Positions 3,508-48,426 of a stretch of 64,000 nucleotides of DNA are shown here, in pieces. Position numbers and translations under genes: made by a program. The stretch is from Terriglobus albidus (GTDB taxonomy: Bacteria > Acidobacteriota > Terriglobia > Terriglobales > Acidobacteriaceae). The DNA lies in NCBI RefSeq assembly GCF_025685425.1, contig NZ_JAGTAS010000058.1, positions 1,054,001 to 1,118,000 on the forward strand. The letters are read 5' to 3'. Within the stretch, counting starts at the first letter, position 1, and every line of letters begins with the position of its first letter. Below the pieces are notes generated by a model. It ran no database searches. It was not told where the DNA came from and saw only the letters and a program-made list of their open reading frames with translations.

Positions 3508-4884
3508 ATGGCTCGCATTTATCCGTTCCGCGCCTTCCGTTATAACCCCGCCAAGGTCAAGCTGGAGGATGTCGTCACCCAGCCTTATGACAAGATCACC
3601 CCGGAGATGCAGGACCGCTACTACGCGAAGAGCCCGCTGAACCTCATCCGCGTGATCCTGGGGAAACACTTCCCGGGCGACACCGAAGAGGGAGAGAACG
3701 TCTACACCCGCGCCGCCGACACCCTCAACGCCTGGCGCAAGGACCAGGTGCTCGTCGAAGAGGCGGAACCGGCTATCTACGGTTATTCGCAGGTCTACAC
3801 CGTTCCGGGCACTACTGAAACCCGCGAGCGCCGTGGCTTTATCGCCCTCGGCCATCTCTACGACTACGCCGACCAGGTCGTCTATCGCCACGAACAGACT
3901 TTTCCCAAGCACAAGTCCGATCGTCTGGCCCTGTTCAAAGCCACCCGCGCTTACTGCGAGCAGATCTACATGCTCTACAACGACCCCGGCTTCAGCGTCG
4001 AACGCCTTCTCTTCGAGAACGGCCCCGCTCCAGACCAGGCCGTTGTCGACGAGTACGGAGTCCTTCATAAGCTCTGGAAGATTACTGACCCGTCCCTGAT
4101 CCGTATCATCGTGGGCGCCATGCAGGACAAGAAGCTCATCATCGCCGATGGCCACCATCGCTACGAGACCTCGGTCGCCTACTCGAAGGAACGCGCGGCC
4201 GCTCTTGGCCTGCCCTTTAATCCTGCTCCGGGCTCCGAAACCGCCGGAGCCGACGAGGCGGAAAAGTTGCACGTCACCGCCACCGACCTGCCCACGCCGG
4301 CTTACCCCGAAGCTGCCATGATGATGACCTTCGTCAATATGGCTGCCCCCGGAATCACCATTCTGCCGACACACCGCGTGCTCAACGGCCTGCAGAACTT
4401 CTCGGCGCACGACCTCCTCGCCAAGGCGGCTCCGTACTTTGAAGCCGCTGCTTTGAACGGCAGCAACCATGTAGCCCTCAAAACAGCCCTCGACGCTACG
4501 GAAGGCGTGGCCTTCGTTGCCGTCACCTCTCATGGAAGCTGGCTGCTCACCGCGAAACCTGAAGCCATTGAGCCGAAGCTGCAGGAGTTTTCCCCCCGTC
4601 AGCGTCAGCTCGATGTCGTACAGCTCCACGGCCTGCTCTTTGCGCAGATCCTCGGTCTCTCGCAGGAACAGGTGACGAAACTGGGCAACGTAAAGTATCT
4701 TCGCGAAGCATCCGAGGCGGTGGATCTGGTGAACAAAGGAGAGGCGGACGTTGCTTTCCTTACCAAACCGGTCACATTGCAACAACTCCGCGATGTTGCC
4801 TTCGCCAACGAGGTCATGCCGCAGAAGTCCACGGACTTCTATCCGAAGTTGCTGAGCGGTCTTGCCATCTATGCCCTGGATTAG
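3508..4884 (+). CDS. DUF1015 family protein (458 aa)
   Basis: Conserved protein of the DUF1015 family, recognised from the start MARIYPFRAFRYNP, the VVTQPYDKI motif near residue 30 and the strongly conserved DGHHRYET near residue 220. Length is normal for the family (about 400-460 aa). Biochemical function is not established. A GTG six codons upstream (3490) is in frame, but family members begin at MARIYPFRA, so ATG 3508 is preferred. The stop codon TAG (4882-4884) is the first three bases of repeat element copy A. Removing the element would leave TAA at the same place, so the protein's end is unchanged. The amidase gene overlaps its last 14 bases. Confidence 0.88.
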   Translation: MARIYPFRAFRYNPAKVKLEDVVTQPYDKITPEMQDRYYAKSPLNLIRVILGKHFPGDTEEGENVYTRAADTLNAWRKDQVLVEEAEPAIYGYSQVYTVPGTTETRERRGFIALGHLYDYADQVVYRHEQTFPKHKSDRLALFKATRAYCEQIYMLYNDPGFSVERLLFENGPAPDQAVVDEYGVLHKLWKITDPSLIRIIVGAMQDKKLIIADGHHRYETSVAYSKERAAALGLPFNPAPGSETAGADEAEKLHVTATDLPTPAYPEAAMMMTFVNMAAPGITILPTHRVLNGLQNFSAHDLLAKAAPYFEAAALNGSNHVALKTALDATEGVAFVAVTSHGSWLLTAKPEAIEPKLQEFSPRQRQLDVVQLHGLLFAQILGLSQEQVTKLGNVKYLREASEAVDLVNKGEADVAFLTKPVTLQQLRDVAFANEVMPQKSTDFYPKLLSGLAIYALD

Positions 4885-5689
4885 AGCATTTTTCCTGTTG
4901 CTGGGTATCCCGACAGAGGAGTGCAGCGGCGTTTTCATTGCGGAAAACGCCCATAGATGCGGAAGCCCTACTCTGCACCGACAGAAAAAATGCTCTAAAC
5001 CCGCGTCGTTTGCGGCGGCGGCTGTGGCAGCTCTCCTGCTGCCCGCCGCCCGCGCGCAAACCCCTGCACCACAGCAACCCGTCATCCTTCTCGACGCCGC
5101 TCACGGCGGCCCGGATACCGGGGCAAGGCTCACGGAAAAACTCCCGGAGCGCGAAGTGACCATCGCCTTCGCCAACCGCCTCCAATCCTTGCTGATCGTG
5201 CGTGGCTTCAAAGTCGTCTTGACGCATACAACACCGGACGATGCCGCTAATCTCACCGGCGATGGCCGGGTTGAGCTCGCCAACCGTTCCGGAGCCATGG
5301 CTTGCATTACCCTGCATGCCTCCGGCAACGCCGCCGGAGTCCATCTCTTCACCTCCGCTCTTCCCGAGACCGAACCGGCGCTCCAGGGCGCCAAACCTGT
5401 CCCCTGGAATGAAGCGCAGGCTCCCTGGGTCACACGTTCACTTCGCCTCGCTTCAGAGCTGCAGGCTGCTATTTCCCGCTCTCATACGCCCGTCACCAGT
5501 AGCCGCACCTGGCTGGCTGCACTCGATTCCCTCGCCTGCCCCGCAGTTGCAATCGAGCTTGGTCCGCTTGATGACGCCACTGCCCAGGATCCCGCCTATC
5601 AACAGCGAGTCGCAGAGGCCATCGCCGGAGCCCTGCTCTTCTGGCGAGGCCATCCAAACGCCGTTACCGGCACGGGAGCTGTGCGATGA
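4871..5689 (+). CDS. N-acetylmuramoyl-L-alanine amidase, signal peptide interrupted by a repeat element (272 aa)
   Basis: Amidase_3-type peptidoglycan amidase that would cut the MurNAc-L-alanine bond in the periplasm. The catalytic domain starts at VILLDAAHGGPDTGA (zinc histidine) and includes the conserved ELANRSGA and ITLHASG motifs and VAIELGPLDD near the end. The N-terminus is odd: after MPWI the next 38 codons are encoded by repeat copy A. Only then comes KPASFAAAAVAALLLPAA, a hydrophobic stretch ending at RAQ. Removing 114 bp joins MPWI to KPASF and gives an ordinary signal peptide in the same frame. The stop overlaps the GerMN gene start (ATGA). Whether the extended signal still works, or an internal TTG in the element is used, is not visible. 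Confidence 0.82.
   Translation: MPWIRAFFLLLGIPTEECSGVFIAENAHRCGSPTLHRQKKCSKPASFAAAAVAALLLPAARAQTPAPQQPVILLDAAHGGPDTGARLTEKLPEREVTIAFANRLQSLLIVRGFKVVLTHTTPDDAANLTGDGRVELANRSGAMACITLHASGNAAGVHLFTSALPETEPALQGAKPVPWNEAQAPWVTRSLRLASELQAAISRSHTPVTSSRTWLAALDSLACPAVAIELGPLDDATAQDPAYQQRVAEAIAGALLFWRGHPNAVTGTGAVR
4882..4997 (+). repeat. Palindromic repeat element, copy A (116 bp)
   Basis: Reference orientation. Imperfect terminal inverted repeats TAGAGCATTTTTCCTGT and ACAGAAAAAATGCTCTA enclose a core with a perfect 9-bp inner hairpin (GGCGTTTTC / GAAAACGCC, loop ATTGCG). The core GTGCAGCGGCGTTTTCATTG is shared by all copies. It is flanked by TA on both sides. Deleting the inside plus one TA restores GAT TAA at the end of the DUF1015 gene and an uninterrupted signal peptide in the amidase. 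No transposase is encoded. Confidence 0.9.
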
Positions 5690-6393
5690 TCCCCCGCTAC
5701 CAGCGCATCCTGTTTCTGGCGCTGATGACGCTCTCAGTTCTCATGGCGGGCTATCTGTGGCGCGTCCACCAGCGCACCATCGCCCGGCTGAACTCTATTT
5801 CCAGTGCAGCCACGCCGATTGAGGCTCCGGGCGGCGCCACAATCCAGACCGAGGCCGTTACCTTCCTCCTGGCAGATGATGCCGCAGGCACGATTACCCC
5901 CAGTGACCGCCAGATCGCGCTGCCCAACGAGCCGACGATCCGCCTGCGCGCCATCCTTGAACGTCTTTTCAGCGATTACGGACAGACAGACTCGCGCCAC
6001 CCCCTCAAGTTCGATGGCTCTGCCATTGCCGACGTCTTCTTCCTTCCACTCCCGCTTACACCTCCCAAGCCGCCCGAATCCGGATATAAAAACACCGAGG
6101 AAAAGACCACGCCCTCTCCCACCGCCTTCACCGACATGGCGGCGCGGAACGGATATATGGCGGTGATCAATCTCCGCCAGAGCTTCGCGGATGCACATCC
6201 CTCCGGAATCGAGGTCGAGACTCTGACCGTGCTCTCCATACTGGGTACGGTCCATGCAAATTTTCCACAAGTCAGCCGGATTCGGTTCCTCGTGGACGGC
6301 AAAACAAGGCCCACATTGGCTGGGCATTTCTCTCTGGATCGGGTGTATCCTTCTACCGACACCACCCTTCAATCGACGAAAGAGATACCATGA
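5686..6393 (+). CDS. GerMN domain protein, membrane-anchored (235 aa)
   Basis: One N-terminal membrane segment (about residues 9-24, ILFLALMTLSVLMAGYLW) is followed by a linker and a GerMN domain from about residue 65 (LPNEPTIRLRAILERLF, then VINLRQSFADAHPSGIEVE, ending RIRFLVDGKTRPTLAGHFSL). GerMN domains occur in spore germination protein GerM and in many Gram-negative envelope proteins, where they often lie near amidase genes. It is coupled to the amidase (ATGA overlap) and to murI (again ATGA, 6390-6393), which points to a peptidoglycan-linked role. The exact function is unknown. Confidence 0.8.
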   Translation: MIPRYQRILFLALMTLSVLMAGYLWRVHQRTIARLNSISSAATPIEAPGGATIQTEAVTFLLADDAAGTITPSDRQIALPNEPTIRLRAILERLFSDYGQTDSRHPLKFDGSAIADVFFLPLPLTPPKPPESGYKNTEEKTTPSPTAFTDMAARNGYMAVINLRQSFADAHPSGIEVETLTVLSILGTVHANFPQVSRIRFLVDGKTRPTLAGHFSLDRVYPSTDTTLQSTKEIP

Positions 6394-7205
6394 CCGCCGT
6401 GCATGTTGGCGTCTTTGACTCCGGCTTCGGAGGCTTGACCGTATTGCGCGCACTCCTGCCGCTGATTCCAGGAGCCCGCTACACCTACCTGGGCGACACC
6501 GCCCGTCTTCCCTACGGCGCCAAGTCCCGCCAGACCATCGCGCGCTACGCCGTTTCTTCCGCCAAGTTTCTTGAAGATCACGGTGCAGAGATGCTCGTCA
6601 TCGCCTGCAACACCGCATCCGCACTTGCGATGGACGAACTCAGGGCATCGACCAGCCTTCCTATTCTCGGCGTGATTGAACCCGGGGCTGAGGCTGCCCG
6701 TGAGGCCACGACCGCCGGCTCTGCCCTGGTGCTGGCCACCCAGGCTACCGTTCAGTCAAACGCCTATCTCAAAGCCCTGCAAGCTGTCGGCATCGAGGCC
6801 ACACAGAAGGCCTGCCCGCTTCTTGTGCCGCTCGTTGAAGAGGGATGGATCGACCACGACGTCACCGAACAGGTGGCGCGCATCTACCTCACCGAAGCTC
6901 TCGCCGATGCCGCCAAGACCGGGCTCTCGCCGTCTACTGTGCTTCTTGGGTGCACCCACTATCCTCTGCTCCGTCCGCTCATCACACGGCTTCTCGCCGA
7001 GCTGAGCCCGCAGCCGATCACTGTCATCGATTCCGCAGAGACGACCGCCGGCAAAGTGGCAGAGATGCTCCACGCCTTACCTGGCCGCCCATCGGACAAC
7101 CTCACCTTCTACGCCACCGATTCGACAGAAAAGTTCCAGGTTCTCGGCTCCCGCTTCCTCGGCCAACCCCTGCCGGAAGTCAAACTACTCGACCTCGGCG
7201 GCTAG
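6390..7205 (+). CDS. murI: Glutamate racemase MurI (271 aa)
   Basis: Converts L-glutamate to D-glutamate for peptidoglycan precursors, in the cytoplasm. All family hallmarks are present: GVFDSGFGGLTVLRAL at the N-terminus, YLGDTARLPYG, the first catalytic cysteine in VIACNTASA (near residue 73) and the second in LLGCTHYPLLRP (near residue 190). Length is normal. Its start overlaps the GerMN stop, making amidase-GerMN-murI a compact cell-wall operon. Confidence 0.96.
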   Translation: MTAVHVGVFDSGFGGLTVLRALLPLIPGARYTYLGDTARLPYGAKSRQTIARYAVSSAKFLEDHGAEMLVIACNTASALAMDELRASTSLPILGVIEPGAEAAREATTAGSALVLATQATVQSNAYLKALQAVGIEATQKACPLLVPLVEEGWIDHDVTEQVARIYLTEALADAAKTGLSPSTVLLGCTHYPLLRPLITRLLAELSPQPITVIDSAETTAGKVAEMLHALPGRPSDNLTFYATDSTEKFQVLGSRFLGQPLPEVKLLDLGG

Positions 7206-7281
7206 CGCTCCTGGGTTTCAGGGACTATATCAACGATTCAACTATTCAACCGTTTTCAGAGCCAGCAACTAGAATCTCCCC
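7206..7281. repeat. Short gap with octamer repeats
   Basis: The gap between murI and the EVE gene carries two 8-bp units (CGATTCAA, CTATTCAA) at 7234-7249. They are the same octamer family as at 3404 and 32338. No terminator with a T-tract is obvious. Confidence 0.5.
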
Positions 7282-7668
7282 ATGGCTGCCTACCTTCTCA
7301 AATCCGAACCCGACGTCTACTCCTTTGAAGATCTGCAGCGTGACGGCGAAACCGTATGGGATGGCATCAAGAACCCCCAGGCATTGATCACTCTGCGTGG
7401 CATGAAACCCGGTGAAGACCTGGTCATCTATCACTCCAACGTCGGCAAAGCTGCCGTCGGTCATGCCAAGGTTGTCTCGGTCGATGCTTCTGATCCGAAG
7501 AATCCTGCTGTGCGCATCAAGCCGGTCAAAGCGATCGCACGCCCGAAGCCCCTCGCCGAGATTCGCGACAATCCCCTGTTCACAGACTCCATTATGTTCC
7601 GTCAGTTCCGCCTCTCCGTAGTGCCTCTGACCAAAGAGCAGTTCACCTGGCTCGTCCAGGGCAAGTAA
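7282..7668 (+). CDS. EVE domain-containing protein (128 aa)
   Basis: Small soluble protein consisting only of an EVE (PUA-like) domain: AAYLLKSEPDVYSFEDL at the start, then VWDGIKNPQALITLRGMKPG and DLVIYHSNVGKAAVGHAKVV. EVE domains bind modified bases in DNA or RNA, and the family includes human THYN1. The native target is unknown. The YHS pocket typical of the family is conserved. It is monocistronic, lying between two repeat-rich gaps. Confidence 0.92.
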   Translation: MAAYLLKSEPDVYSFEDLQRDGETVWDGIKNPQALITLRGMKPGEDLVIYHSNVGKAAVGHAKVVSVDASDPKNPAVRIKPVKAIARPKPLAEIRDNPLFTDSIMFRQFRLSVVPLTKEQFTWLVQGK

Positions 7669-7824
7669 GTAAAGCAGCTGCCAGTTAACAGTTTCCAGTT
7701 GAGAGGTACGGCATGGATATGAAAAAGTCCATCGACGCACCCAGAGAGCCCCCATACGACCATCGCTAGCCCAACTGGCAACAGCATCAGAGGATCGAAA
7801 AGAGATCATCACTGACGGAACGCC
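7669..7824. repeat. Composite repeat: heptamer array, core, heptamers
   Basis: The gap holds three 7-bp units (CAGTTAA, CAGTTTC, CAGTTGA; 7682-7702), then a roughly 65-bp core (GGTACGGCATGG, then AAGTCCATCGACGCACCCA), then CAACTGG CAACAGC. A diverged copy of the same core lies at 9194-9262, also after a heptamer array. No gene is seen. Confidence 0.6.
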
Positions 7825-8133
7825 ATGAACCTTCCCTACTTACACCTCGCCTCCACGACGCTTCCATTCTGGTTCCTCGTTCTCTCGCTCTTTCTACCTC
7901 GTATCTGCCTCGCCATTGCCTGGCTGCAGGGCAATCTCACACCATTTCATCTCTTCGGGTGGGTGCCGCTGCTCGCCGCCATCTTGGTGCCGCGCATTCT
8001 GATCCTGGTGCTCATCTACCAGAGCCAGGGTCTCTCAGTCTGGTTTCTCATCCATGCCGTCGTGATGGTCTGTGTCTTCGCCGGAGCAGGCTCCCAACCC
8101 GCCCGCAGACGTCGACGCTCAGAGGACTTCTAG
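7825..8133 (+). CDS. Small hypothetical membrane protein (102 aa)
   Basis: Not recognised. Three hydrophobic segments are visible: PFWFLVLSLFLPRICLAIAW (about 15-34), WVPLLAAILVPRILILVLIY (about 46-66) and VWFLIHAVVMVCVFAGAG (about 71-88). A basic tail (RRRRR near residue 95) follows. It is probably an inner-membrane protein. It stands alone between repeat-rich gaps, with the convergent methyltransferase gene downstream. The coding call rests on the clean membrane topology and ATG start. Confidence 0.6.
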   Translation: MNLPYLHLASTTLPFWFLVLSLFLPRICLAIAWLQGNLTPFHLFGWVPLLAAILVPRILILVLIYQSQGLSVWFLIHAVVMVCVFAGAGSQPARRRRRSEDF

Positions 8134-8314
8134 AACGCATCGACGCATTCAGAGCGTCCCAAATCCTGGGTGCCTCATATATGCGAAGCATATGTGGGCT
8201 TATCGAGCGCCAGCTCGATCCGTTTTTCGAGTCCAAGAAAAAGGACTTTCAGCTGCTGCAGGAAAAACTCCCTCGCCAAACATGCCGTCATCTTCAACTT
8301 TCAACTTGCAACGT
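8134..8314. repeat. Repeat-rich gap between convergent genes
   Basis: Contains a hairpin of the GGGGCACCC-type family at 8164-8198 (inner stem ATATGC-GAA-GCATAT). Four 7-bp units follow at 8292-8319 (CTTCAAC, TTTCAAC, TTGCAAC, GTTCAAC). No coding potential supported. Confidence 0.55.
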
Positions 8315-9151
8315 TCAACGGCCTTCAAAGAGGCATAGCCGTCCTTCATCCACAGCCGACACCGCCTTGACCCAGGACTGCGCTGCAATCTCCGCCGTGC
8401 AAGGCCCGAGGGAAGCAATCCGAATTGGCCGCTTGCGGCTCTCCTCCTCTAACCGTTGCAGCACCTCCGCCAGCATCGAGCCCCGGAACGGCGTGTACAG
8501 GTAGAAGACCGTTCCCCAGCCCAGATCAGCCTCCCTGACATCCTGCTCAAGAAAACGTGCCTGCTCCAATCCCAGGTCTGCAGCACATTGCCTCGCGGCC
8601 GCCACATAAGCAGCCTGTACTTCAATCCCGACGCTCTGACATCCGGAGAACATTGAAGCCAGCAAGGACACATGCCCCATCCCCGCACCGAAATCGACTA
8701 ACCGGTCCGTCTCCCGCAGGTCAAACCTCTCGATCAGATCGAGGATGTGTCGCGCCGGCGTTGGCTGATAAAACACCATCTCTTCTGCAAGTTCCGGCAG
8801 CTCCATCTCTGGTACGTGAAGCTGCAGCAGGCCGCTCACAATTTCGTCCAACGAGTCATACGAGAGCCCATGTCGTGGCAACTCCGTCTCTCGTTGCCCT
8901 CGCAGCCATTGCCAGACATCCGCCACGGAACCCTGCCGTATCTCCTCACGAATCGCGTCATACACGGCTGCATTGGCGGCGTCGAGGCGCGAGCGCATCG
9001 TCACAGCGCGCTGCACCCCCAAACTGCTCCGCGGCCCGGCGCTTCCCAAAAAGAAATCCAACCGGTCCAGCGCATCGATCCGCTTCCGCAGTCCATCTCT
9101 GCCAAAGAGATCCGAATCGACCTCGAGTTCCGCAAGAAAGCCATCAAGCAT
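8315..9151 (-). CDS. Class I SAM-dependent methyltransferase (278 aa)
   Basis: Soluble protein with an alpha-helical N-terminal part (about 1-125) and a C-terminal Rossmann methyltransferase domain. The SAM-binding motif I is LVDFGAGMGHVSLLAS near residue 152, followed by VGIEVQAAYVAAARQ (acidic loop residue E) and the motif IV-like VFYLYTPFRGSMLAEVL. Substrate is unknown. It starts 14 bp from a heptamer array and is followed, convergently, by a small membrane-protein gene. No operon partners. Confidence 0.85.
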   Translation of the reverse strand: MLDGFLAELEVDSDLFGRDGLRKRIDALDRLDFFLGSAGPRSSLGVQRAVTMRSRLDAANAAVYDAIREEIRQGSVADVWQWLRGQRETELPRHGLSYDSLDEIVSGLLQLHVPEMELPELAEEMVFYQPTPARHILDLIERFDLRETDRLVDFGAGMGHVSLLASMFSGCQSVGIEVQAAYVAAARQCAADLGLEQARFLEQDVREADLGWGTVFYLYTPFRGSMLAEVLQRLEEESRKRPIRIASLGPCTAEIAAQSWVKAVSAVDEGRLCLFEGR

Positions 9152-9165
9152 ATCTTTTAACTACA

Positions 9166-9262: not shown

Positions 9263-9265
9263 CTC

Positions 9266-9314: not shown

Positions 9315-9337
9315 CAACTGCCTTTACACTGTTGGCC

Positions 9338-9796: not shown

Positions 9797-9843
9797 ACGG
9801 ACGATCCTTGGTATCCTAGATAAATCACGCTTTCAGTCAAAGA

Positions 9844-9860: not shown

Positions 9861-9870
9861 CAAGGACCGT

Positions 9871-17283: not shown

Positions 17284-18129
17284 TTGAGCACTACCCTCGA
17301 GCAGACCATTGAACATCACTTTGCCTCCGGAGCCGCAGCGATCGGCAACCCCGACGCTGAAAAGGCTTTCCTGGAGCTCCGCGGTCAACTCGAAGCTGGT
17401 ACGCTGCGCTCAGCCTCTCCCGATGATGCCTCGTCGATCGGTTGGACGGTCAATGCATGGGTCAAACGCGGCATCCTTTTGGGTTTCCGGATCGGCCAAC
17501 TCGAAGATCAGTCCTGCGGCCGCCTGAGCTTCATCGATAAAGCTACCTATCCGGCACGCACCTTTACTCCCGAACAGGGAGTCCGGGTGGTACCTGGCGG
17601 TTCGTCAGTACGCAGCGGAGCCTATCTCGCCAAGGGTGTGGTGATGATGCCTCCCGCCTATGTGAACGTTGGTGCGTATGTGGATGAAGGCACCATGGTG
17701 GATTCGCACGCTCTGGTAGGTTCCTGCGCACAGATCGGCAAGCGCGTCCACCTCTCGGCGGCATGCCAGATCGGAGGCGTGCTGGAACCCGTCAATGCCT
17801 CACCAGTGATCATTGAAGATGACGTCCTGGTAGGTGGAAATACGGGCGTCTATGAAGGGACGATTGTACGTTCTAAGGCTGTCCTCGCGGCCGGTACAGT
17901 GCTGACGCGCGGGACTCCGGTCTATGACACGGTGAACGGAACCGTTCTGAAAGCAACGGCGGACCAGCCGCTCATCATTCCGTCAGGCGCCGTTGTGGTT
18001 CCAGGTGCGCGTGCTATCACCAAAGGAAAAGGGACGGAGTGGGGGCTCTCTGTCTACACCCCCGTCATCGTAAAGTACCGCGACGAGAAGACGGATCTCT
18101 CGACGGCACTTGAAGACCTGCTGCGTTAG
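17284..18129 (+). CDS. dapD: 2,3,4,5-tetrahydropyridine-2,6-dicarboxylate N-succinyltransferase (281 aa)
   Basis: Succinylates tetrahydrodipicolinate in the succinylase branch of diaminopimelate synthesis. An N-terminal helical domain is followed by a left-handed beta-helix of hexapeptide repeats. Landmarks are [60 protein letters not shown] and [20 protein letters not shown]. It uses a TTG start at 17284, supported by an AAGGAGA ribosome-binding site at 17271-17277. The stop TAG is the first three bases of repeat copy B. Removing the element regenerates TAG, so the protein end is unaffected. Confidence 0.95.
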
Positions 18130-18240
18130 AGCATTTTTCTGTAGGCGTAGAGTAGGGTTCCGCATCTATGGGCGTTTTCCGCAATGAAAACGCCGCTGCA
18201 CTCCTCTTCCGGGATACCCGGCAACAGGAAAAATGCTCTA
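18127..18240 (-). repeat. Palindromic repeat element, copy B (114 bp, reverse orientation)
   Basis: Reverse complement of the copy A type, with TAGAGCATTTTTC and GAAAAATGCTCTA ends and the same core and inner hairpin. It is flanked by TA on both sides. Excision of the inside plus one TA joins CGT to TAG, the dapD stop. The element ends 13 nt before the rnj start codon, so it forms the whole dapD-rnj intergenic region apart from the ribosome-binding site. Confidence 0.9.
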
Positions 18241-26608: not shown

Positions 26609-27919
26609 GTGACGCTAGGAAAGTTGCTCCTCCTCCCACTGTTGCCGGCGGCTTTGCTGGCAGCCCAGACGCCTGTGGATGCGCCGCTGCCGGCAGAGCC
26701 TGCACCGCAGCAGACGGCTGTAGCCGCTACATCCGGCGAGTTGCGGCTGACGCTTGATGATGCCCTGGCCATGGCGCGACGCAACAGTCCGCGCCTGCAG
26801 GAGGCGCTTGCGGCAACACAGCGCGGCCAGGCAGCGGTACAGACGGCGCGCGCCTACACGAACCCTAATGTCGAAGTCTTCCAGGGCCGCCAGTATGCAC
26901 GGCCGATCAAAACACCCGGAACTCCAGGTCTGCTGCAGCACTATGCGGGTTACCAGACCATTGAGATTCCCACGGAACGTAGTGCACGACGCAAGGCAGC
27001 GGAGTTCATGGCGGCAAGCGCGCGAGCGGCCGAGCGCGGTGTGGGCCTGAATGTGATGGCGGATACGCAGCGTGCGTTCTATGAGGCGCTGAAGCGGCAG
27101 GAGGAGATCAATCATGCGCGCGAGAATCTGGCGCTGGTCGAGGACCTCCGGCGGCGTGTCGAGGTCGAGGTGAATGTCGGCGAAAAAGGCAAGCTGGAGC
27201 TGACACGAGCAGAAGCGGAGTTGGCTCGTGCGCGGTTCGCAGTAAACAGCGCGCAAATCGAATACGCTTCGGCAATCGCAATTCTGCGTGCGGTGATTGC
27301 GGCACCTGCGGATGCAAATCTGATTCCGGTGGGCGTGACCACGGCACACATGACTCTGCCGCCGCTGGATACGCTACGCGACCAGGTGCTGACCGCACAT
27401 CCGGCAGTCGCGCAGTCTGAGGCAGAGTTGAATGCAAGCCGATCGACACTGGACCGCGAGAAAGCGCTTCGTATTCCGCAGCCGACTGCTTTTGCCGAAT
27501 TTGAGAACCAACCCGATCTGCGCTACTGGCGAGCCGGCATCACGATTCCGATTCCGCTGTGGGACAGGCGGCGTGGACAGATTGCGGATGCAAAGGCAGC
27601 GATCTCACAAGCCAACGCGACGCTGGATCAGCGGCGCCTGGAGCTGGTGAGCGCGCTGGAACGGGCCTATGAACAGTACCAGCTGGCTGACCAGCAGGTG
27701 ACATCGCTGGAGGCCGGATCGCTGCGAGCTGCAGAAAGCGCGGTGGAGGCGGCGAAGTCTGCATACCGGTTCGGTGAGCGCGGCATTGTTGAGGTTCTGG
27801 ACGCACAGCGCGTACTGCAAAGTGTGCGCGGCGATTTGCTGGATGCGCAGTTCGCGCGCCAGTCTGCATTGATCGATCTGGAAGAACTGGGCGCACTGAC
27901 GCCGGGAGCGAGGCCGTGA
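26609..27919 (+). CDS. TolC-family outer membrane efflux protein (436 aa)
   Basis: Outer-membrane channel of a tripartite RND pump (CusC/CzcC type). A signal peptide MTLGKLLLLPLLPAALLAAQ is followed by two homologous helical halves: LRLTLDDALAMARRNSPRLQEAL near residue 50 and later LDTLRDQVLTAHPAVAQSEAEL, with long coiled-coil segments. The frame is open to 26405 through non-coding repeat sequence. GTG 26609 gives a normal signal peptide, but it lacks a ribosome-binding site and coincides with the predicted sigma54 start site. The stop TGA overlaps the adaptor gene ATG by one base. Confidence 0.88.
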   Translation: MTLGKLLLLPLLPAALLAAQTPVDAPLPAEPAPQQTAVAATSGELRLTLDDALAMARRNSPRLQEALAATQRGQAAVQTARAYTNPNVEVFQGRQYARPIKTPGTPGLLQHYAGYQTIEIPTERSARRKAAEFMAASARAAERGVGLNVMADTQRAFYEALKRQEEINHARENLALVEDLRRRVEVEVNVGEKGKLELTRAEAELARARFAVNSAQIEYASAIAILRAVIAAPADANLIPVGVTTAHMTLPPLDTLRDQVLTAHPAVAQSEAELNASRSTLDREKALRIPQPTAFAEFENQPDLRYWRAGITIPIPLWDRRRGQIADAKAAISQANATLDQRRLELVSALERAYEQYQLADQQVTSLEAGSLRAAESAVEAAKSAYRFGERGIVEVLDAQRVLQSVRGDLLDAQFARQSALIDLEELGALTPGARP

Positions 27920-29184
27920 TGACACGATGGTTGAAGCATTTTTCCTGTTGCTGGGTATCCCGGGAGGAACGTGCAGCGGCGTTTTCATTGAGGAAAACGC
28001 CCACAGATGCAAAAGCCCTGTACTACACCTACAGAAAAAATGCTTTGGCGGCCGCGGCAATGGCCGCGGTGTTGCTGGGGGCAGGTTGTAAGTCGAAGCC
28101 GAAGGAAGCGAAGGCGGCAACAAGCGCCGGAGATCCAAACATCGTGACGGTGACGCCGGTGCTGGCCGAGAGCCTGAAGTTCGGAACACCGCAGATGGCC
28201 GAGGTGAACGGGACACTGCAGGTGGCCGCTCGTGTTGAGACAGATGCGCAACGTATTGCGCGCGTCGGATCTCCGGTCTCCGGACGCATTCTGAACCTGC
28301 TGGTCTTTGAAGGGCAGTTCGTGCGCGCAGGAGCGGTTCTGGCAACGTTGCACAGCACCAACCTTTCGGACACGCAGTTCGCCTTGATCAAAGCAGCGTC
28401 GCAGCGGGAGCTTGCCGCAGCAGCGGAAAAGCGCGCGGAGCAACTGGTGGCGGCGGATGTGATTGGGCGAGCGGAGCTGGAGCGGAGACGTGCCGAACGA
28501 TTGCAGGCGGCTACCGAAGAGGCGAGCTATCGCACGCAACTGCTCGGCCTCGGCATGACTGAAGCACAGATCCGGCAACTGGAGACATCACGCAAGCTGA
28601 GCGCCGATTATCCAATCGTTGCTCCAAAGAGCGGAACCGTGTTGAAGCGCGAGATCACCATTGGACAAGTGGTACAGCCCGCAGACCCTGCATTCACCAT
28701 CGCCGACCTGTCGAATGTGTGGATCACAGCGGATGTCCCTGAGCAGGAGGCCGGAATACTGAAGCAGGGGATGAATGTCGAAGTGCGTGTCCCCGCGCTG
28801 AAGGATCTGCAGCTCAACGGCCGGCTCTCATTTGTTTCTCCCATTGTCGATCCGGCAACTCGCACCGTAGAGGTGCGTATGGATGTTCCAAACCCCGACG
28901 GGCGGTTGAAGCCAGATGAACTCGCCAGCATGACCTTTACTGGGCGCAGCGACCATAAGCTGACGGTACCGAACGCTGCAGTGGTACGTGAAGACAATAA
29001 GGACAACATCTTCGTGCAGATCGGGCCACAGCGATACATCCTGCGTGAGGTAACACTGGGCGAGGAAGAGAACGACAGGCGCGTTGTGATTAGCGGTGTA
29101 ACGCCGGATGAGCGGATGGTGACCGAGGGAGCCTTTCACCTGAACAATCAGCGCAAGCAGGCTGCGATCAAAGGAGAGAAGTAG
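27919..29184 (+). CDS. RND efflux periplasmic adaptor lipoprotein, signal peptide interrupted by a repeat element (421 aa)
   Basis: Membrane-fusion protein of the CusB/CzcB group linking inner-membrane pump and outer channel. Landmarks: barrel-sandwich hybrid VGSPVSGRILNLLVFEGQFV and YPIVAPKSGTVLKREITIGQ, the hairpin between them, beta-barrel VWITADVPEQEAGIL, and C-terminal YILREVTLGEE. The N-terminus is unusual: MTRWL is followed by 38 codons encoded by repeat copy C, then ALAAAAMAAVLLGAGC with a lipobox (LGAGC). Deleting 114 bp (27934-28047) restores a compact lipoprotein signal, MTRWL-AAAAMAAVLLGAGC, in frame. Middle gene of the efflux operon, 2 bp before the pump gene. Confidence 0.88.
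   Translation: MTRWLKHFSCCWVSREERAAAFSLRKTPTDAKALYYTYRKNALAAAAMAAVLLGAGCKSKPKEAKAATSAGDPNIVTVTPVLAESLKFGTPQMAEVNGTLQVAARVETDAQRIARVGSPVSGRILNLLVFEGQFVRAGAVLATLHSTNLSDTQFALIKAASQRELAAAAEKRAEQLVAADVIGRAELERRRAERLQAATEEASYRTQLLGLGMTEAQIRQLETSRKLSADYPIVAPKSGTVLKREITIGQVVQPADPAFTIADLSNVWITADVPEQEAGILKQGMNVEVRVPALKDLQLNGRLSFVSPIVDPATRTVEVRMDVPNPDGRLKPDELASMTFTGRSDHKLTVPNAAVVREDNKDNIFVQIGPQRYILREVTLGEEENDRRVVISGVTPDERMVTEGAFHLNNQRKQAAIKGEK
27934..28047 (+). repeat. Palindromic repeat element, copy C (in frame inside the adaptor gene)
   Basis: Same orientation as copy A; ends AAGCATTTTTCCTGT and ACAGAAAAAATGCTT. Both ends carry matching changes relative to A (GAGC to AAGC, GCTC to GCTT), so they still pair. 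It is flanked by TG on both sides. The 112-bp inside plus one TG is 114 bp, exactly 38 codons, with no stop in the adaptor frame. Confidence 0.9.
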
Positions 29185-37817: not shown

Positions 37818-37931
37818 TAGAGCATTTTCACTGTTGCTGGATATCCCGGAAAAGGCGTGCAGCGGCGTTTTCATTGCGGAAAAACGCCCAAAGATGTGGA
37901 AGCCCGCAGTACACCTACAGTAAAAATGCTC
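37818..37931 (+). repeat. Palindromic repeat element, copy D
   Basis: Same orientation as copy A; ends TAGAGCATTTTCACTGT and ACAGTAAAAATGCTCA. The inner hairpin has one extra A. It sits within a heptamer array: CAGTTAC CAGTTTA CTTGCTA (37799-37819) on the left and GTTGCTG GTTTCTG GTTGCTA GTTGCTG (37934-37961) on the right. It lies upstream of the queD operon (gene on the other strand). Confidence 0.9.
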
Positions 37932-38022
37932 ACGTTGCTGGTTTCTGGTTGCTAGTTGCTGGTTGAAGCAAGAGAAGTGGCAACCGGATCACCGTCGGCT
38001 CCGCGGCGAATTTGCTGATAAA

Positions 38023-41726: not shown

Positions 41727-43520
<1,794 letters not shown>

Positions 43521-43603
43521 TTGAATAAAGGAATGATTGAATCATTCGATCGTTGCGGACGAAGGCAATGATTCTCAGACGTTCTAGTAAGCGATGGTGA
43601 ATT

Positions 43604-44698
43604 CTAACTTGTGGGCTCATCTGCGATCGCAGGTGGCTCCGGATCCAGCGGAGGCGCCGGCTGCAGATTCCACCAGCTTTGTCCTGGCGGTTCGAGAAGG
43701 TCGCCGAGTCGTGGGTAGCGGCCGCCGAGATAGTAGGCCGCGTAGCACCGCAGGAAGAGGGTTACCGTACCGATGGTGAAGAGCTGCACGTAGAGCGCGA
43801 TCGTAAAGAAACACAGCACGAAGATCGCGACGCCGATACCCACTCCCGCTGTGCCGAGAGAATGACCGGTCGCGGTTATGTGAGGGAGCGCAAGGCCGCC
43901 AATGATGGCCGGTATGATGACCAGGAAGTAGAAGAACAGCATCACGATCGAACTTACGGTGTAGTGCGCGATGAATCCGACGATCGCCAGGACAATCTTC
44001 AGAGCGGCGTAACCGCAGATGCTCCCCGGCTCCTGCCGGAACAGGTCCTGGAAGCGTCGCAACGCGTTGCCCGGCGTGACCTCTTCGAGCACGAGCGAAG
44101 GCAAGACGAAATCTGTCAACAGGCCACCGGCGACAATGACGAGCGACACGCCGGCGAAGAAACAAACATATACCAGCAGGAAAGACGCGACGACCGGAAG
44201 CGGATTCTGTTGCCCGGCCTGAAGAGCAGGCGCTGATCTGAGAATCCAGAAAAGAAAGAAGAGAAAGGGCAGACATGCCAAAACAGCAAGTGGCGTGGTG
44301 ATGGCAAGCTTCAGCTTTGCCCAACGCCAGCGCAGTGGATGATATTTCCGCCAGGCAGGAGCAACGAATTGGGCGCGCTCTACCGCGATGTCGAACGAGA
44401 TCAGTTGCATGCGGGAGGTCAGGGTAAAGATCCAGAACGAGAAAGCATCGAAGGCAAGCGCGCCGAGGATTCCGAGAAAAGCATGACCTGGCCTGATGGG
44501 GCCATACACATTCGGTCTCCAGAAGATGAAACAGATGAGGCCGAGAGTGCAGAAGGGGATGTACGCGGTTCCGATGACAGCAACATAGGTCGACGCAGCG
44601 AGCTTCCAACTCCGGCCAAAGTGAAAAGGCTGAAAGAGTATCTCGCGGGTTCGATTGAAGGCGGGGCCGATGGCTTCAGATGGGGTAAGTCGTTTCAT
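43604..44698 (-). CDS. Multi-pass membrane protein, paralogue 2 (364 aa)
   Basis: Unknown function. About seven hydrophobic segments run from residue 30 to 320 (e.g. YVAVIGTAYIPFCTLGLICF; LAVLACLPFLFFLFWIL; VSSIVMLFFYFLVIIPAIIG). Conserved ends: SEAIGPAFNRTREILFQPF at the start and LGGRYPRLGDLLEPPGQSWW near the C-terminus, then a Pro-rich tail. The same blocks occur in the adjacent upstream gene, so this is a tandem duplication. The genes are 15 bp apart and surely co-transcribed. Similar to uncharacterised inner-membrane proteins of Acidobacteria; no catalytic motif was seen. Confidence 0.8.
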   Translation of the reverse strand: MKRLTPSEAIGPAFNRTREILFQPFHFGRSWKLAASTYVAVIGTAYIPFCTLGLICFIFWRPNVYGPIRPGHAFLGILGALAFDAFSFWIFTLTSRMQLISFDIAVERAQFVAPAWRKYHPLRWRWAKLKLAITTPLAVLACLPFLFFLFWILRSAPALQAGQQNPLPVVASFLLVYVCFFAGVSLVIVAGGLLTDFVLPSLVLEEVTPGNALRRFQDLFRQEPGSICGYAALKIVLAIVGFIAHYTVSSIVMLFFYFLVIIPAIIGGLALPHITATGHSLGTAGVGIGVAIFVLCFFTIALYVQLFTIGTVTLFLRCYAAYYLGGRYPRLGDLLEPPGQSWWNLQPAPPLDPEPPAIADEPTS

Positions 44699-44713
44699 GC
44701 TCTGGTTGTTGCT

Positions 44714-45787
44714 CTATAGTTCTCCCGCTACGCTTCCGGGAGCAGTAGGCGGAGGATCAAAGGGGACGGAAGGTTGCAGGTTCCACCAGCTTTGTCCGAC
44801 GGGTTCCAAGATCTCCCCCAGAAGAGGATAGCGACCACCGAGAAAGTACAGCGCATATGCCTGGAAGAAGGTGCAGATGAATCCGGCAACCAGCACCATG
44901 ACAAAGAGTACCCAGACAACCAGCACGAACAAACCCACAAACAGGCCGAGCCCCAGTAGCGCACTCGCCATCGGCGACTTGTGCACGAGCAGATAGAAGA
45001 TGGCCCCGACGAGCCCCATGGGTACCAGACCGAGAAATGCCGCCACAAAATAAACGATGTAGCCGCCGATGGCGAAGACAATGAACAGCGCCACCCGGAG
45101 CAGCATATAAAGCACGACCTGGCCGGGTTCGTCCCTCACCACCGCCATGCCACGCTCCAGCGCCGTAGCGAGCGATGCATTCTCAAGCGCGATGAACGGC
45201 ATGACGAAGTCGCGTAGCAGCCAGTAAATGGCAAAGACGCACAGACTGACGAAGCTGATCACCAGAAAGAACTGGAGGAATGCGGGGAAGAATCCAGGTG
45301 GAAGCTGGCCGGGAACCGTAGACCGCATCCGCGCGGCGATACCGCGGGTGTAGCGCAGGGTCGCAATGACAACAAGCACGTAAAACAGAAGGCTGGGCAG
45401 AAGCTTCAGCCCCATCCAGCGCCAGACCGGCGCGCCATGTTTCCGCCAGAGCGGCAGAATCTCTGTTTGTCTGGTAGCGACCACATCCACCATGACCAAC
45501 TGCATGCGCGAACCGACGAGAAAGAGAATGGTCGTAACGATAAAGACTGCGAAGATCAAGATGCCGGAGACCGCGGCCATGGCCAGGGCGGATTTGGCCG
45601 AGGCTGGGTGCGATGCGCCGGAACGCAGGCCGGCGAAGTTTGGCAGCGAGAGCAGGCTGCCCGCCTCTGCCAGAACAGCACAGAGGGCCAGCTTGAAGTA
45701 AAGACTGAATCTGCGTCGTTCGAAGAGGATCTGCTTAGTGCGCTCCCATGCGGGACCGATGCACTCGGACGCGGAGAGGGTATTCAT
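44714..45787 (-). CDS. Multi-pass membrane protein, paralogue 1 (357 aa)
   Basis: Paralogue of the following gene: SASECIGPAWERTKQILFERR at the start, SRMQLVMVDVVATRQTEILPLWRKH in the middle, FFQAYALYFLGGRYPLLGEI and LEPVGQSWWNLQPSVPF near the end. Hydrophobic segments span about residues 30-330 (e.g. LLFYVLVVIATLRY; ALLGLGLFVGLFVLVVWVLF). Function is unknown. First of the two-gene unit, convergent with der on the far side. Confidence 0.8.
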   Translation of the reverse strand: MNTLSASECIGPAWERTKQILFERRRFSLYFKLALCAVLAEAGSLLSLPNFAGLRSGASHPASAKSALAMAAVSGILIFAVFIVTTILFLVGSRMQLVMVDVVATRQTEILPLWRKHGAPVWRWMGLKLLPSLLFYVLVVIATLRYTRGIAARMRSTVPGQLPPGFFPAFLQFFLVISFVSLCVFAIYWLLRDFVMPFIALENASLATALERGMAVVRDEPGQVVLYMLLRVALFIVFAIGGYIVYFVAAFLGLVPMGLVGAIFYLLVHKSPMASALLGLGLFVGLFVLVVWVLFVMVLVAGFICTFFQAYALYFLGGRYPLLGEILEPVGQSWWNLQPSVPFDPPPTAPGSVAGEL

Positions 45788-45835
45788 AAAGTGCGGCGGC
45801 CCCTTTTGCCTGTTGGGGCTGAGAGTATCGCAGCC

Positions 45836-47176
45836 CTACGCCGGGAGCAATGACTTTTCCGCCGCGAGCCACTCGGCCCATGCATTAAGGGCACGTTCGC
45901 ACTGAATACGGTGACGTTCTTTCTTGTCGCGGACCTTCTTCCGGAGCTCTTCTTCGAGCGGCGGCAAAAGGTCAAACGTAATATTGGCCGGCTGGAAGCT
46001 TTGCGCCTCAGAGTGCGTGATGTAGTGCACTAAGGAGCCGTGCGCAGTTGGGCGTGGCGGTGTAGCCGGCTGCTCTCCCTTAGCGAGCATGGCGGCGAAG
46101 CGGCCGGCAAGAAGACCGCCGGCGATGGATTCCGTGTAGCCTTCCACCCCCGAGAGCTGCCCGGCGATGAGGATCGATGGGTGTGCCTTCAACTGCAGTG
46201 TTTCGTTCAGCACGGCGGGCGAGTTGATGTAGGTATTGCGGTGGATCTGGCCGTAGCGCAGGAACTTTGCGTTTTCGAGGCCGGGGATCATACGCAACAC
46301 CTTCGCCTGATCGCCGTACTTCATGTGGTTCTGGAAGCCGACGAGGTTATAGCTGTCGGCACGCAGGTTCTCCTGCCGTAACTGCACGCAGGCATACGGC
46401 CAGCGGCCGGTTTTGGGATTGGTGAGCCCTGCCGGCTTCATGGGACCGAAGCGAAGCGTGTCGCGGCCACGGCGGGCGAGCTCATCGATCGGGAGACAGG
46501 CTTCGAAGTACTGCGGCTTCTCCCAATCTTTGCTTGCGACTTTCTCTGCGGCGAGCAGCGCGTCGAGAAAGGCTTCGTACTCCTCTTTGGTGAAGGGGCA
46601 GTTGATATAGTCCGCAGTTCCCTTGTCCCAGCGCGCCGCGAAGTAGACCTTCTCCATGTCGATGGTTGAAGCATCAACGATAGGCGCGATGGAGTCGTAG
46701 AAGGCGAGCTGGTCGCTGCCAGTAAGCCGCTGCAGCTCGCCGGCGAGGGCGGGTGAGGTCAGCGGACCGGTCGCAAGCACGGTGATGTGGTCTGCACCTT
46801 CGGCAAGAGTCGTCACCTCTTCGCGGACGACAGTGATGCGCGGATATGCGGCGATGGCGTCGGCGACACGGCGGGAGAACTCCACGCGATCGACGGCGAG
46901 GGCATGCCCGGCGGGAACGGCGGTGGCATCGGCCTCCCGCAACAGGAACGAACCGGCGCGGCGCATCTCTTGTTTTAGGAGCCAGGGAGCGGTGTTCTCA
47001 CTTTCGCTCTTCAGCGAGTTGGAGCAGACGAGCTCGGCGAAGTCGCTGGTCTGATGCGCCTCAGTCGAGCGGCGCGGCCGCATCTCAAAGAGCGTGACCT
47101 CACAGCCCAGGGATGCAGCCTGCAATGCGGCTTCCGGCCCGGCAAGACCACCGCCAATCACGTGAACCTTTTTCAT
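45836..47176 (-). CDS. trmFO: Methylenetetrahydrofolate-tRNA-(uracil-5-)-methyltransferase TrmFO (446 aa)
   Basis: FAD- and folate-dependent enzyme making ribothymidine at position 54 of tRNA. It starts VHVIGGGLAGPEAALQAASL (FAD-binding), then CEVTLFEMRPRRSTEAHQTS and FAELVCSNSLKSESENTAPW with the essential cysteine. Later NCPFTKEEYEAF, CLPIDELARRGRDTLRFGPM and GQLSGVEGYTESIAGGLLAG. Length is typical. The start overlaps the stop of the GNAT gene by 4 bp. Confidence 0.96.
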   Translation of the reverse strand: MKKVHVIGGGLAGPEAALQAASLGCEVTLFEMRPRRSTEAHQTSDFAELVCSNSLKSESENTAPWLLKQEMRRAGSFLLREADATAVPAGHALAVDRVEFSRRVADAIAAYPRITVVREEVTTLAEGADHITVLATGPLTSPALAGELQRLTGSDQLAFYDSIAPIVDASTIDMEKVYFAARWDKGTADYINCPFTKEEYEAFLDALLAAEKVASKDWEKPQYFEACLPIDELARRGRDTLRFGPMKPAGLTNPKTGRWPYACVQLRQENLRADSYNLVGFQNHMKYGDQAKVLRMIPGLENAKFLRYGQIHRNTYINSPAVLNETLQLKAHPSILIAGQLSGVEGYTESIAGGLLAGRFAAMLAKGEQPATPPRPTAHGSLVHYITHSEAQSFQPANITFDLLPPLEEELRKKVRDKKERHRIQCERALNAWAEWLAAEKSLLPA

Positions 47177-47655
47177 ACAGAAAACTTCTTTGCCAGCGCG
47201 GGCAGGTCGTCGCCATCGACGCGCATGATACGCCAGGGATGGAGCATCTTCGCTCCGATGGATTCATAGAATTTGATGGCAGGCTCGTTCCAATCGAGCA
47301 CATGCCACTGGAAGCGATCGCCACGTTCAGCTGCGATGGCGGCAACACTGGAGATAAGCGCTTTGCCGATCCCGAGACGGCGGAACTGGGGCCGCACGAA
47401 GAGATCCTCGAGATGGATGCCGGCGTTGCCGCGCCACGTCGAATAAAACGGAAAATACAGCGCCATACCGGCGGGCCTTCCCTCCCACTCGGCGATCAGG
47501 CACTGAAAAACGGGACGGTCGCCAAAACCGTCACGAAGCAGGTCTTCGGCGGTCGCAATAGCGGCGTGGGGTTCGCGTTCGTACTCGGCGAGCTCGCGGA
47601 TGAACGCGAGCATCTCCGGGACATCGGCGGGTGTGGCTTCACGGATCGTTAACAT
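47173..47655 (-). CDS. GNAT family N-acetyltransferase (160 aa)
   Basis: Acetyl-CoA-dependent transferase: TIREATPADVPEMLAFIREL at the N-terminus, YSTWRGNAGIHLEDLFVRP, and the acetyl-CoA loop QFRRLGIGKALISSVAAIA near residue 100. Then FQWHVLDWNEPAIKFYESIG, as in diamine/spermidine-type acetyltransferases. The substrate is unknown. Coupled to trmFO by a 4-bp overlap. Confidence 0.9.
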   Translation of the reverse strand: MLTIREATPADVPEMLAFIRELAEYEREPHAAIATAEDLLRDGFGDRPVFQCLIAEWEGRPAGMALYFPFYSTWRGNAGIHLEDLFVRPQFRRLGIGKALISSVAAIAAERGDRFQWHVLDWNEPAIKFYESIGAKMLHPWRIMRVDGDDLPALAKKFSV

Positions 47656-47672
47656 ACAGCGCAGTAACCAGT

Positions 47673-48281
47673 TTACGGCTTCTGGGCGCTGGACACAGGC
47701 GGCACATACTTCGCCAGCGGGATTTCAAAGGCATACAGCTCGCGATTGCCCTTTTTATCGAAAACCATGACCTGCTTCACATACATCTGGCCGGTGCTAA
47801 AGGGCTGCTTGATCCTCTGCAGATCGTAGATCAGATACCCGGAGACGGTGCTGTGCGGCGCTACCAATGTGGAGCGAAACCCGAACTGTTCGAAGTCGAG
47901 AGCAAGGTTCGACTCGATCGCCCGGGGATTTCGGCGGTAGGCCGTAATGCGGCGGTAGACCTCCATCTCCGTCGCAGCCGGAATGCGGTCGTTATTGCTG
48001 GAGATGAAGTGCATTCGCACCTCATCCAGCGTCAGCGTATGGTCGGAATCGTTCGTGATGATGATGCGGATCGGGAAGAAATCCCATTCCTGGTAATGCT
48101 CGCGAAAGAACGGGCAACGCTGTACCACGTCGCACGGCTCCGCCGCGATGGCAACCTTCTCGTCGGCTTGAATGTCGACAGCAGCATATGCCCTGGCTTC
48201 GTGGGCTGGTGGTGCGATGCGGTCAGCGGCAAAGGCAATGGAAGTGATTCCCAGAAAACTCAGCAGAAAAAACCGGAACAT
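47673..48281 (-). CDS. Exported protein of unknown function, paralogue 2 (202 aa)
   Basis: A signal peptide (MFRFFLLSFLGITSIAFAA) is followed by a domain with EKVAIAAEPCDVVQRCPFF, FFPIRIIITNDSDHTLTLDE, RMHFISSNNDRIPAATEMEV and a C-terminal YVKQVMVFDKKGN. The same blocks occur in the gene upstream. Two cysteines (C-x5-C) may form a disulfide. The frame opens at 48350 inside repeat copy E, but the signal peptide fixes ATG 48281, 29 nt after that element. Function unknown; the motifs look like an Ig-like periplasmic domain. Confidence 0.78.
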   Translation of the reverse strand: MFRFFLLSFLGITSIAFAADRIAPPAHEARAYAAVDIQADEKVAIAAEPCDVVQRCPFFREHYQEWDFFPIRIIITNDSDHTLTLDEVRMHFISSNNDRIPAATEMEVYRRITAYRRNPRAIESNLALDFEQFGFRSTLVAPHSTVSGYLIYDLQRIKQPFSTGQMYVKQVMVFDKKGNRELYAFEIPLAKYVPPVSSAQKP

Positions 48282-48310
48282 TGCCTTTAGGCTATGTCGT
48301 TTGGCGCCCT

Positions 48311-48426
48311 GGAGCAATTTCCCTGTAGGGGTAGAGTAGGGCTTCCGCATCTATGAGCGTTTTCCGCAATGAAAACGCCGCTGCACTCTTCTTCCGGGAT
48401 ACCCAGTAACAGGGAAAATGCTCTAA
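48311..48426 (-). repeat. Palindromic repeat element, copy E
   Basis: Reverse orientation; in the reading of copy A it runs TTAGAGCATTTTCCCTGT to ACAGGGAAATTGCTCC. The end stems pair through CCCTGT/ACAGGG, a matched change relative to copy A. It fills the gap between the two exported paralogues, 29 nt before the start of the downstream one. Confidence 0.9.

What the first reader, a model, noticed from the sequence alone, without database searches (positions are those of the whole stretch)
4882..48426. A 112-116 bp palindromic, transposase-less element occurs five times, always at a gene's 5' end
Copies A 4882-4997, B 18127-18240, C 27934-28047, D 37818-37931 and E 48311-48426 share terminal inverted repeats near TAGAGCATTTTTCCTGT and a constant core with the perfect inner hairpin GGCGTTTTC / GAAAACGCC. 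The distance to the next start codon is 13 nt (B), 46 nt (D) and 29 nt (E); A and C lie inside the first codons. Orientation relative to the gene is mixed. The compensated changes at paired ends (C: AAGC/GCTT; E: CCCTGT/ACAGGG) suggest the stem itself is under selection. This resembles Correia-type or MITE elements, but I do not know a named family with this sequence.
Basis: partly seen in the sequence, partly recalled or inferred. Interest (0 to 1): 0.78.

Follow-up and report, generated by a model that had tools for sequence, protein, structure and literature searches.

The report
Transposon-derived repeat at gene boundaries
A 116-letter jumping repeat, most likely moved by a borrowed IS630-type enzyme, has spread to several hundred places in an acidobacterium and settles where genes meet, often inside a stop codon that its own end restores or in a protein's start region without breaking the reading frame.

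Summary
The repeat is real, and it is a MITE of the IS630 (Tc1/mariner) family. All five copies are present. The inner-hairpin pattern has 323 hits in this genome (reversed control 0), and HMM counts on a fifth of the genome scale to about 460-480 copies. Sites empty in relatives mostly show one TA where the element is flanked by two. IS630 elements with the same ends occur in other genomes of the family; none was found in this genome at E 1e-6.

'Always at a gene's 5' end' does not hold. Of 95 classified sites on 1.26 Mb, the nearest gene boundary is a 3' end in 64 and a 5' end in 31. At 31 of 96 sites the element sits in the TA of a stop codon; its terminal TAG restores the stop (copies A and B). 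An open-frame test repeats this in three other copy sets. The commonest net insertion is 114 bp, 38 codons, so insertions just after a start codon can keep frame (A, C); many such cases extend signal-peptide-like N-termini.

The stem-selection claim is partly right: paired end changes mark subfamilies. In-place conservation of the inner hairpin is strong in one comparison and weak in another. RUP is the closest known element.

The parts
4882..4997 (+). Copy A (family I, 116 bp). Lies in the overlap of a DUF1015 gene (stop) and an Amidase_3 gene (start); its first TAG is the DUF1015 stop and the amidase frame runs through it
4871..5689 (+). Amidase_3 gene with a 38-codon N-terminal extension encoded by copy A; ATG at 4871; frame kept in two related genomes with element indels of +6 and -3 only
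   Evidence: use of this start is inferred
4882..4884 (+). TAG of copy A used as stop codon of the DUF1015 ORF 3490-4884
18127..18240 (-). Copy B (family I, reverse orientation), between a tetrahydrodipicolinate succinyltransferase-like gene and an RNase J gene
18127..18129 (+). TAG of copy B used as stop codon of ORF 17284-18129
27932..28047 (+). Copy C (family I), 10 nt after the ATG codon (27919-27921) of a HlyD/CusB-like gene; ORF runs through it in a different frame from copy A; frame intact in two related genomes
37818..37932 (+). Copy D (family I), 46 nt upstream of the start (37771) of a minus-strand PTPS gene, about 90 nt after the end of the next minus-strand ORF
48310..48425 (-). 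Copy E (family I, reverse orientation), 2-3 nt past the stop of minus-strand ORF 48429-49292

Best explanation
It is a non-autonomous IS630-family MITE. Steps shown: (1) the element is GAG...CTC, about 112 bp, and duplicates a TA on insertion, so the commonest net gain is 114 bp; (2) it prefers C or T before and G or A after the TA (CTAG-like); (3) its ends match those of about 1.02-1.03 kb IS630 elements in related genomes. Steps inferred: such a transposase moved it in trans, and the source is now absent or unrecognised here. Copies persist where they do little harm, at gene boundaries. A TAA or TAG stop fits the target, and because the element starts with TAG in either orientation the stop is rebuilt. 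Just after a start codon, the 38-codon length and three open frames (two forward, one reverse) let the downstream protein be read through, so signal-peptide N-termini are extended rather than broken. The hairpin is best explained as end symmetry needed for transposition, with possibly some in-place constraint on the inner hairpin.
For: Empty sites: 16 own sites are empty in at least one of two MAGs; by eye 14 have a TA at the junction (10 clearly), one has no TA, one is a doublet against a singlet. Own-empty, MAG-filled sites give the same picture, including family I nested in family II at a TA. Ends: 8 of 30 fetched transposase loci have both 12-bp ends within 3 mismatches at 1016-1031 bp spacing; HTH_33 plus DDE_3 in the two tested, each as two overlapping frames. 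Target: C 47% and G 6% at -1 against 24% and 26% in background. Density per 1000 preference-weighted TA: stop codon 27.8, within 30 nt of a 3' end 23.8, of a 5' end 14.9, 31-100 nt 7.3, beyond 100 nt 3.5, last 100 nt of genes 5.0, first 100 nt 2.3, deep in genes 0.07. Stop frame against the other two: 42/11/13, 27/6/6, 11/1/4, 40/12/6 in four sets; next base A or G in 83 of 93 such ends against 127 of 192 others. Read-through: all 19 rows have net length divisible by 3 against 54 of 99 near-full C28 copies (lengths), and 14 of 19 precede a hydrophobic stretch against 28-31% of genes.
Against: No relative of the matching transposase was found in G000 or the copy-rich G039 at E 1e-6, so mobilisation in trans is inferred. 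Many copies lack TA at one end (71 of 99 left and 74 of 99 right ends read TA). After correcting for target preference, the stop codon itself is hardly denser than the next 30 nt (27.8 against 23.8), so there is no evidence of active targeting of stop codons. The target weights come from the same sites. The gene caller was home-made. Translation of the extensions was not tested.
Confidence: 0.87

Rival explanations
1. REP/REPIN-type palindromes moved by a RAYT (Y1) transposase.
For: High copy number, palindromic, mostly extragenic; ten Y1_Tnp matches in this genome.
Against: TA duplication and about 17-bp TIRs fit a DDE IS630 enzyme. Y1 matches occur in 12 of 12 genomes tested, among them five same-genus genomes with 0 core hits. 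IS630 elements share the ends. The flanks of the RAYT genes were not examined for copies.
Confidence: 0.03
2. The inserted hairpin is kept by the host as a functional RNA or DNA structure (mRNA processing, or a protein-binding palindrome).
For: Copies at the same sites in G000 and two MAGs differ by 10 of 351 in the inner stem, 63 of 667 in the TIR and 192 of 1135 elsewhere, while 4-fold sites differ by 31.9%; the loop (12 of 120) changes more than the stem (p 0.004). Family II keeps the hairpin with a swapped G-C pair.
Against: MAG against MAG gives only 9 of 161 against 53 of 508 (p 0.085). No clear G.U over A.C excess in the transcript sense (38 against 27, p 0.21; inner stem 8 against 7). 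Inner stem as conserved at convergent and divergent sites (10 and 7 copies) as at the others. The exact palindrome does not occur outside elements on C28. Gene conversion between copies is not excluded: 9 of 20 same-site pairs are no more alike than random copies.
Confidence: 0.3
3. The stem pairs because template switching makes the two arms alike, not through selection or transposition.
For: End variants at 12-105, 11-106 and 13-104 change on both sides.
Against: In single C28 copies one-sided changes dominate; compensated doubles at inner-stem pairs: 1.
Confidence: 0.1
4. The stop-codon and start-region placement is an artefact of gene calling on sequence from which the element was removed.
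For: The gene caller was home-made and worked on sequence collapsed to a single TA.
Against: The open-frame test needs no gene caller and repeats in three other copy sets; the base after the right TA is A or G more often at such ends; A and C keep frame in relatives.
Confidence: 0.05

Closest known systems
RUP, repeat unit of pneumococcus (proposed to be mobilised by IS630-Spn1)
   Same: 107 bp, TA target, 108-110 copies, ends like those of an IS630 element, tightly folded with paired TIRs (PMC2229807 and PMC3049150, passages read)
   Different: No sequence comparison was made. RUP has stops in all six frames and is densest 50-150 bp from genes; this element has three open frames and is densest within 30 bp of gene ends. 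RUP's IS is common in its host; here no matching one was found in the genome
Correia/NEMIS elements of Neisseria
   Same: About 107/155 bp, TIRs, TA ends, foldable; the short form has ORFs fused to other ORFs
   Different: Different phylum, sequence not compared; RNase III processing and an IHF site are reported there and untested here
BOX elements of pneumococcus
   Same: The repeat encodes the stop codon at the extreme 3' end in 36 of 58 overlapping CDSs
   Different: Modular element; its TIR has been likened to ISSpn2, not to an IS630 element
Rickettsia palindromic elements; ERIC and YPAL fusions
   Same: In-frame insertion in protein genes; one YPAL locus has a signal peptide partly formed by the MITE
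   Different: Reported RPE fusions are in protein genes of many kinds; here the read-through cases lie at N-termini, mostly before a hydrophobic region
IS630 family insertion sequences
   Same: TA duplication (shown for ISY100, PMC2170065); preference for CTAG (title of Tenzen and Ohtsubo 1991 seen in that reference list only)
   Different: This element has no transposase

Membership tests
IS630-type MITE | Short, no transposase gene, many copies | tested here: met
   116 bp; 323 core hits; 113 HMM hits, families I and II, on 1.258 Mb
IS630-type MITE | Terminal inverted repeats | tested here: met
   17 paired positions at the ends, 75-98% Watson-Crick per pair over 87 C28 copies
IS630-type MITE | TA target duplication | tested here: met
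   TA at the junction in 14 of 16 empty own sites by eye, 10 clearly; further sites
IS630-type MITE | Ends shared with an IS630 element | tested here: met
   8 of 30 loci with both ends; HTH_33 and DDE_3 in the two tested. In relatives, not found in this genome
IS630-type MITE | Mobilised in trans by that transposase | not testable with these tools
   needs an in vitro or in vivo transposition assay
RUP | RUP sequence | not tested
   RUP sequence not compared; filed as analogue, not member
Correia/NEMIS | RNase III processing of the transcript | not testable with these tools
   no RNA data
REPIN/RAYT | Presence tied to a RAYT, no target duplication (definition recalled, from no call) | tested here: not met
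   TA duplicated; Y1 matches in genomes without core hits
Rickettsia palindromic element | In-frame presence within proteins | tested here: inconclusive
   Open frames run through A, C and the 19 read-through rows, but translation is untested; works like an RPE at these sites but is not filed as one
Any Rfam family | Match at gathering threshold | tested here: not met
   0 matches in the window

The most novel reading that the evidence does not exclude
A MITE lineage shaped to be invisible to genes: TAG at both ends, a 38-codon net length and three open frames that carry basic residues near their ends let it settle in stop codons, gene overlaps and signal-peptide n-regions, and some copies (A in the amidase, C in the HlyD gene) are now translated N-terminal extensions kept across species, while the inner hairpin is conserved in place by the host.
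Probability: 0.25. Interest if true: 0.72.

Novelty: new member of a known kind. Interest (0 to 1): 0.48.

Why it matters
It gives a bacterial MITE with its likely partner transposase family, target rule, empty sites and gene context at once, and shows how an insertion can pass between or into genes without breaking them. Hundreds of core hits in two same-genus genomes, and copies in two further MAGs, make it a natural experiment on what a 114-bp insertion does to operons and to signal peptides. It also warns that gene ends and N-termini in these genomes may contain mobile sequence.

Tried and rejected
RAYT/REPIN origin: tested by Y1_Tnp search, rejected. IS630 copies of this genome and G039 as partner: of the two G000 matches, C35 shows no end within 5 mismatches and C58 only 5-mismatch matches on one side; the two G039 copies show 4-5-mismatch matches that do not bracket the gene. 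Rfam: no match. RNA selection by G.U/A.C asymmetry and by orientation to the gene: none clear (same 33, opposite 36). RNAalifold inside a script gave an uninformative structure. Freestanding operator idea: the exact palindrome is absent outside elements on C28; 7 places match with up to 2 mismatches, about as many as at other spacings. First gene-position run removed both TA copies and moved gene ends; replaced. A 64,000-base query to the MAGs was over the length limit. MITE interior in the IS loci: what looks like a MITE copy beside a transposase fragment in L275, otherwise matches of 12-25 bases, mostly to the ends (best 30 lines shown).

Limits: C28 is 1.258 of 6.10 Mb. Of 108 sites there, 12 that begin with a partial hit were dropped, leaving 96. 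Copies in L031-L060, L061-L142 and L183-L212 were chosen by the hairpin pattern, so rates of hairpin change were taken from C28 and mainly from loci reached by flanks; 3 of the 20 orthologous pairs (L106, L120, L138) do use pattern-chosen loci. Of 29 filled comparisons, 20 were counted; two were skipped because the MAG copy lies at another place and orientation (sites 22, 28), one because no element was there (site 62), and six because they are family II, multi-copy or low-scoring sites or duplicates. At least two sites (20, 68) are filled in one MAG and empty in the other. The cut-off h >= 2.0 for signal-like stretches was set after seeing the rows; the 19 rows include one copy in both directions, a tandem doublet twice and one ortholog pair.

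Papers: PMC2229807, PMC3049150, PMC2170065, PMC3189936 and PMC10969869 were read as passages only; the rest were search listings. No paper in the held library has the terms acidobacteri, IS630 and MITE together; of three sequence words searched, one matched one paper, on Bacillus cereus.
Full report
Observation. The five copies are present, with limits A 4882-4997, B 18127-18240, C 27932-28047, D 37818-37932 and E 48310-48425 (for A, C, D, E). The window is part of contig C28 of a 6.10-Mb genome. The core pattern with up to 2 mismatches gives 191 + 132 hits against 0 for the reversed pattern. On 1.258 Mb of C28, HMM searches give 99 family I hits and 14 family II hits. Scaling gives about 463-480 family I copies and about 68 family II pieces. 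In the order sample 13 of 150 genomes, the own genome included, have a core hit; the same-genus genome G039 has 249.

Anatomy. The consensus is a 116-bp element with 17-bp ends, TAGAGCATTTTCCCTGT, and a 9-bp inner hairpin with a 6-base loop. A second family has the same architecture and length, ends close to TAGAGCAATTCTCCT, and a hairpin GCCGTTTTC/GAAAACGGC. Tandem arrays with about 114-bp period occur.

Transposition. Two MAGs about 89% identical in the flanks, G412 (SH_60_12) and G413 (Bin6.3), gave 64 comparisons: 29 filled, 25 empty, 10 other; 22 sites filled and 16 empty in at least one, with sites 20 and 68 in both groups. By eye, 14 of the 16 empty sites have a TA at the junction, 10 of them clearly; site 20 has none and site 21 is a doublet against a single copy. 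Clear cases include sites 26, 50, 68, 70 (family II) and 86. Comparison the other way gives the same result, including family I nested in family II. Target flanks favour C or T before TA.

Partner. An IS630 remnant in G136 ends in GAAAATGCTCTA. A search with its C-terminal 51 residues found relatives in 53 of 398 genomes of the family, none in G000 or G039 at E 1e-6. Of 30 loci, 8 (L274, L281, L288, L289, L293, L295, L296, L301) have both ends within 3 mismatches at 1016-1031 bp; several others are cut short by contig ends or show the right end only. The two tested by Pfam, L274 and L281, carry HTH_33 and DDE_3 in overlapping frames. So the element is a MITE of an IS630 group whose source was not found in this genome.

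Gene context. With elements collapsed to one TA and a home-made gene caller, 96 C28 sites fall as: tandem intergenic 35, in a stop codon 31, convergent 9, divergent 7, last 100 nt 7, first 100 nt 5, deep 1, edge 1; random TA sites are 67.8% deep and 2.0% in stop codons. Nearest boundary: 3' end 64, 5' end 31 of 95. Density per 1000 preference-weighted TA falls from 27.8 (stop codon) and 23.8 (within 30 nt of a 3' end) through 14.9 (within 30 nt of a 5' end) to 3.5 (beyond 100 nt); stop codons hold 31 of 82 stop-plus-intergenic sites against 17.4% expected after weighting (p 1e-5). Since the stop codon is hardly denser than the next 30 nt, the excess follows from the target rule plus the preference for gene ends. 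A test without gene calling agrees: open frames of at least 100 codons run into the element's TAG in frame 42 times (other frames 11, 13) on C28, 27 (6, 6) in other G000 loci, 11 (1, 4) in G039 and 40 (12, 6) in MAG loci. The base after the right TA is A or G in 83 of 93 such ends against 127 of 192 others, so most were stop codons before insertion.

Reading through. The net insertion is 114 bp in the commonest length class (50 of 99 near-full copies), and three of six frames of the consensus are open. Copy A lies in the overlap of a DUF1015 gene and an Amidase_3 gene: TAG restores the first stop while the amidase frame continues through 38 codons into a signal-peptide-like region. Both MAGs keep this with element indels of +6 and -3 only and 7 and 2 base differences. 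Copy C does the same in a HlyD/CusB-like gene, in another frame, with no indel in either MAG; most of its changes alter amino acids, so protein-level constraint is not shown. Of the five C28 sites in the first 100 nt, four family I sites keep frame and the one family II site does not. Across 549 copy-and-direction tests, 67 rows have a coding frame open from the element's end; 19 read through with an upstream start, 13 are open without one and 35 have a stop. In 14 of the 19 a hydrophobic stretch follows, against 28% of genes by their N-termini and 31% of 64 genes just downstream of elements. This suggests, but does not prove, that signal-peptide n-regions tolerate the insertion. Translation was not tested.

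The stem. Outer-stem pairs 12-105, 11-106 and 13-104 covary as subfamily variants; one-sided changes dominate in single C28 copies. In 20 same-site pairs between G000 and the MAGs the inner stem differs at 10 of 351, the loop at 12 of 120, the TIR at 63 of 667 and the rest at 192 of 1135 positions, against 31.9% at 4-fold sites and 3.2% at codon positions 1 and 2. In 9 pairs between the MAGs the contrast is weaker: inner 9 of 161, rest 53 of 508, p 0.085, with the TIR lowest at 8 of 258. Nine of the 20 same-site pairs are no more alike than random copies; the seven sites concerned have the same place and orientation in both genomes, which speaks against independent insertion, but gene conversion is open. 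There is no clear sign of RNA-level selection. I hold a host function of the hairpin at about 0.3.

Known relatives. RUP with IS630-Spn1 is the nearest in kind. Stop codons supplied by BOX, in-frame RPEs and a YPAL-formed signal peptide are precedents for each aspect of placement. I therefore file this as a new member of a known kind, with an unusually tight fit to gene boundaries.

Noticed in passing
L217 about 4951-5220 (C28 884951-885220), and loci L088, L107: A second palindromic repeat of about 245-295 bp with ends like GTCATCAAA...TTTGATGAC is present in one genome and absent in the other at two sites; too short for a transposase gene.
   Followed up: no
L129 about 671-900: A tandem doublet of the element in a MAG, both units open in the same frame and continuing into a coding ORF.
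   Followed up: no
L274 952-1701: The IS630 transposase frame ends with the TAG formed by the terminal TA plus the next flanking base, so the target rule also gives the transposase its stop codon.
   Followed up: no
L272 1203-1315 (G127): A TIR-bounded element of 113 bp with similar ends but an interior unlike family I or II by eye, possibly a third MITE family.
   Followed up: no
C28 301894-302127: A tandem doublet in this genome where both MAGs have a single copy.
   Followed up: partly
query part 2700-2760 (a C28 coding-flank chunk): A short repeat found at many places in both MAGs, unrelated to the element.
   Followed up: no
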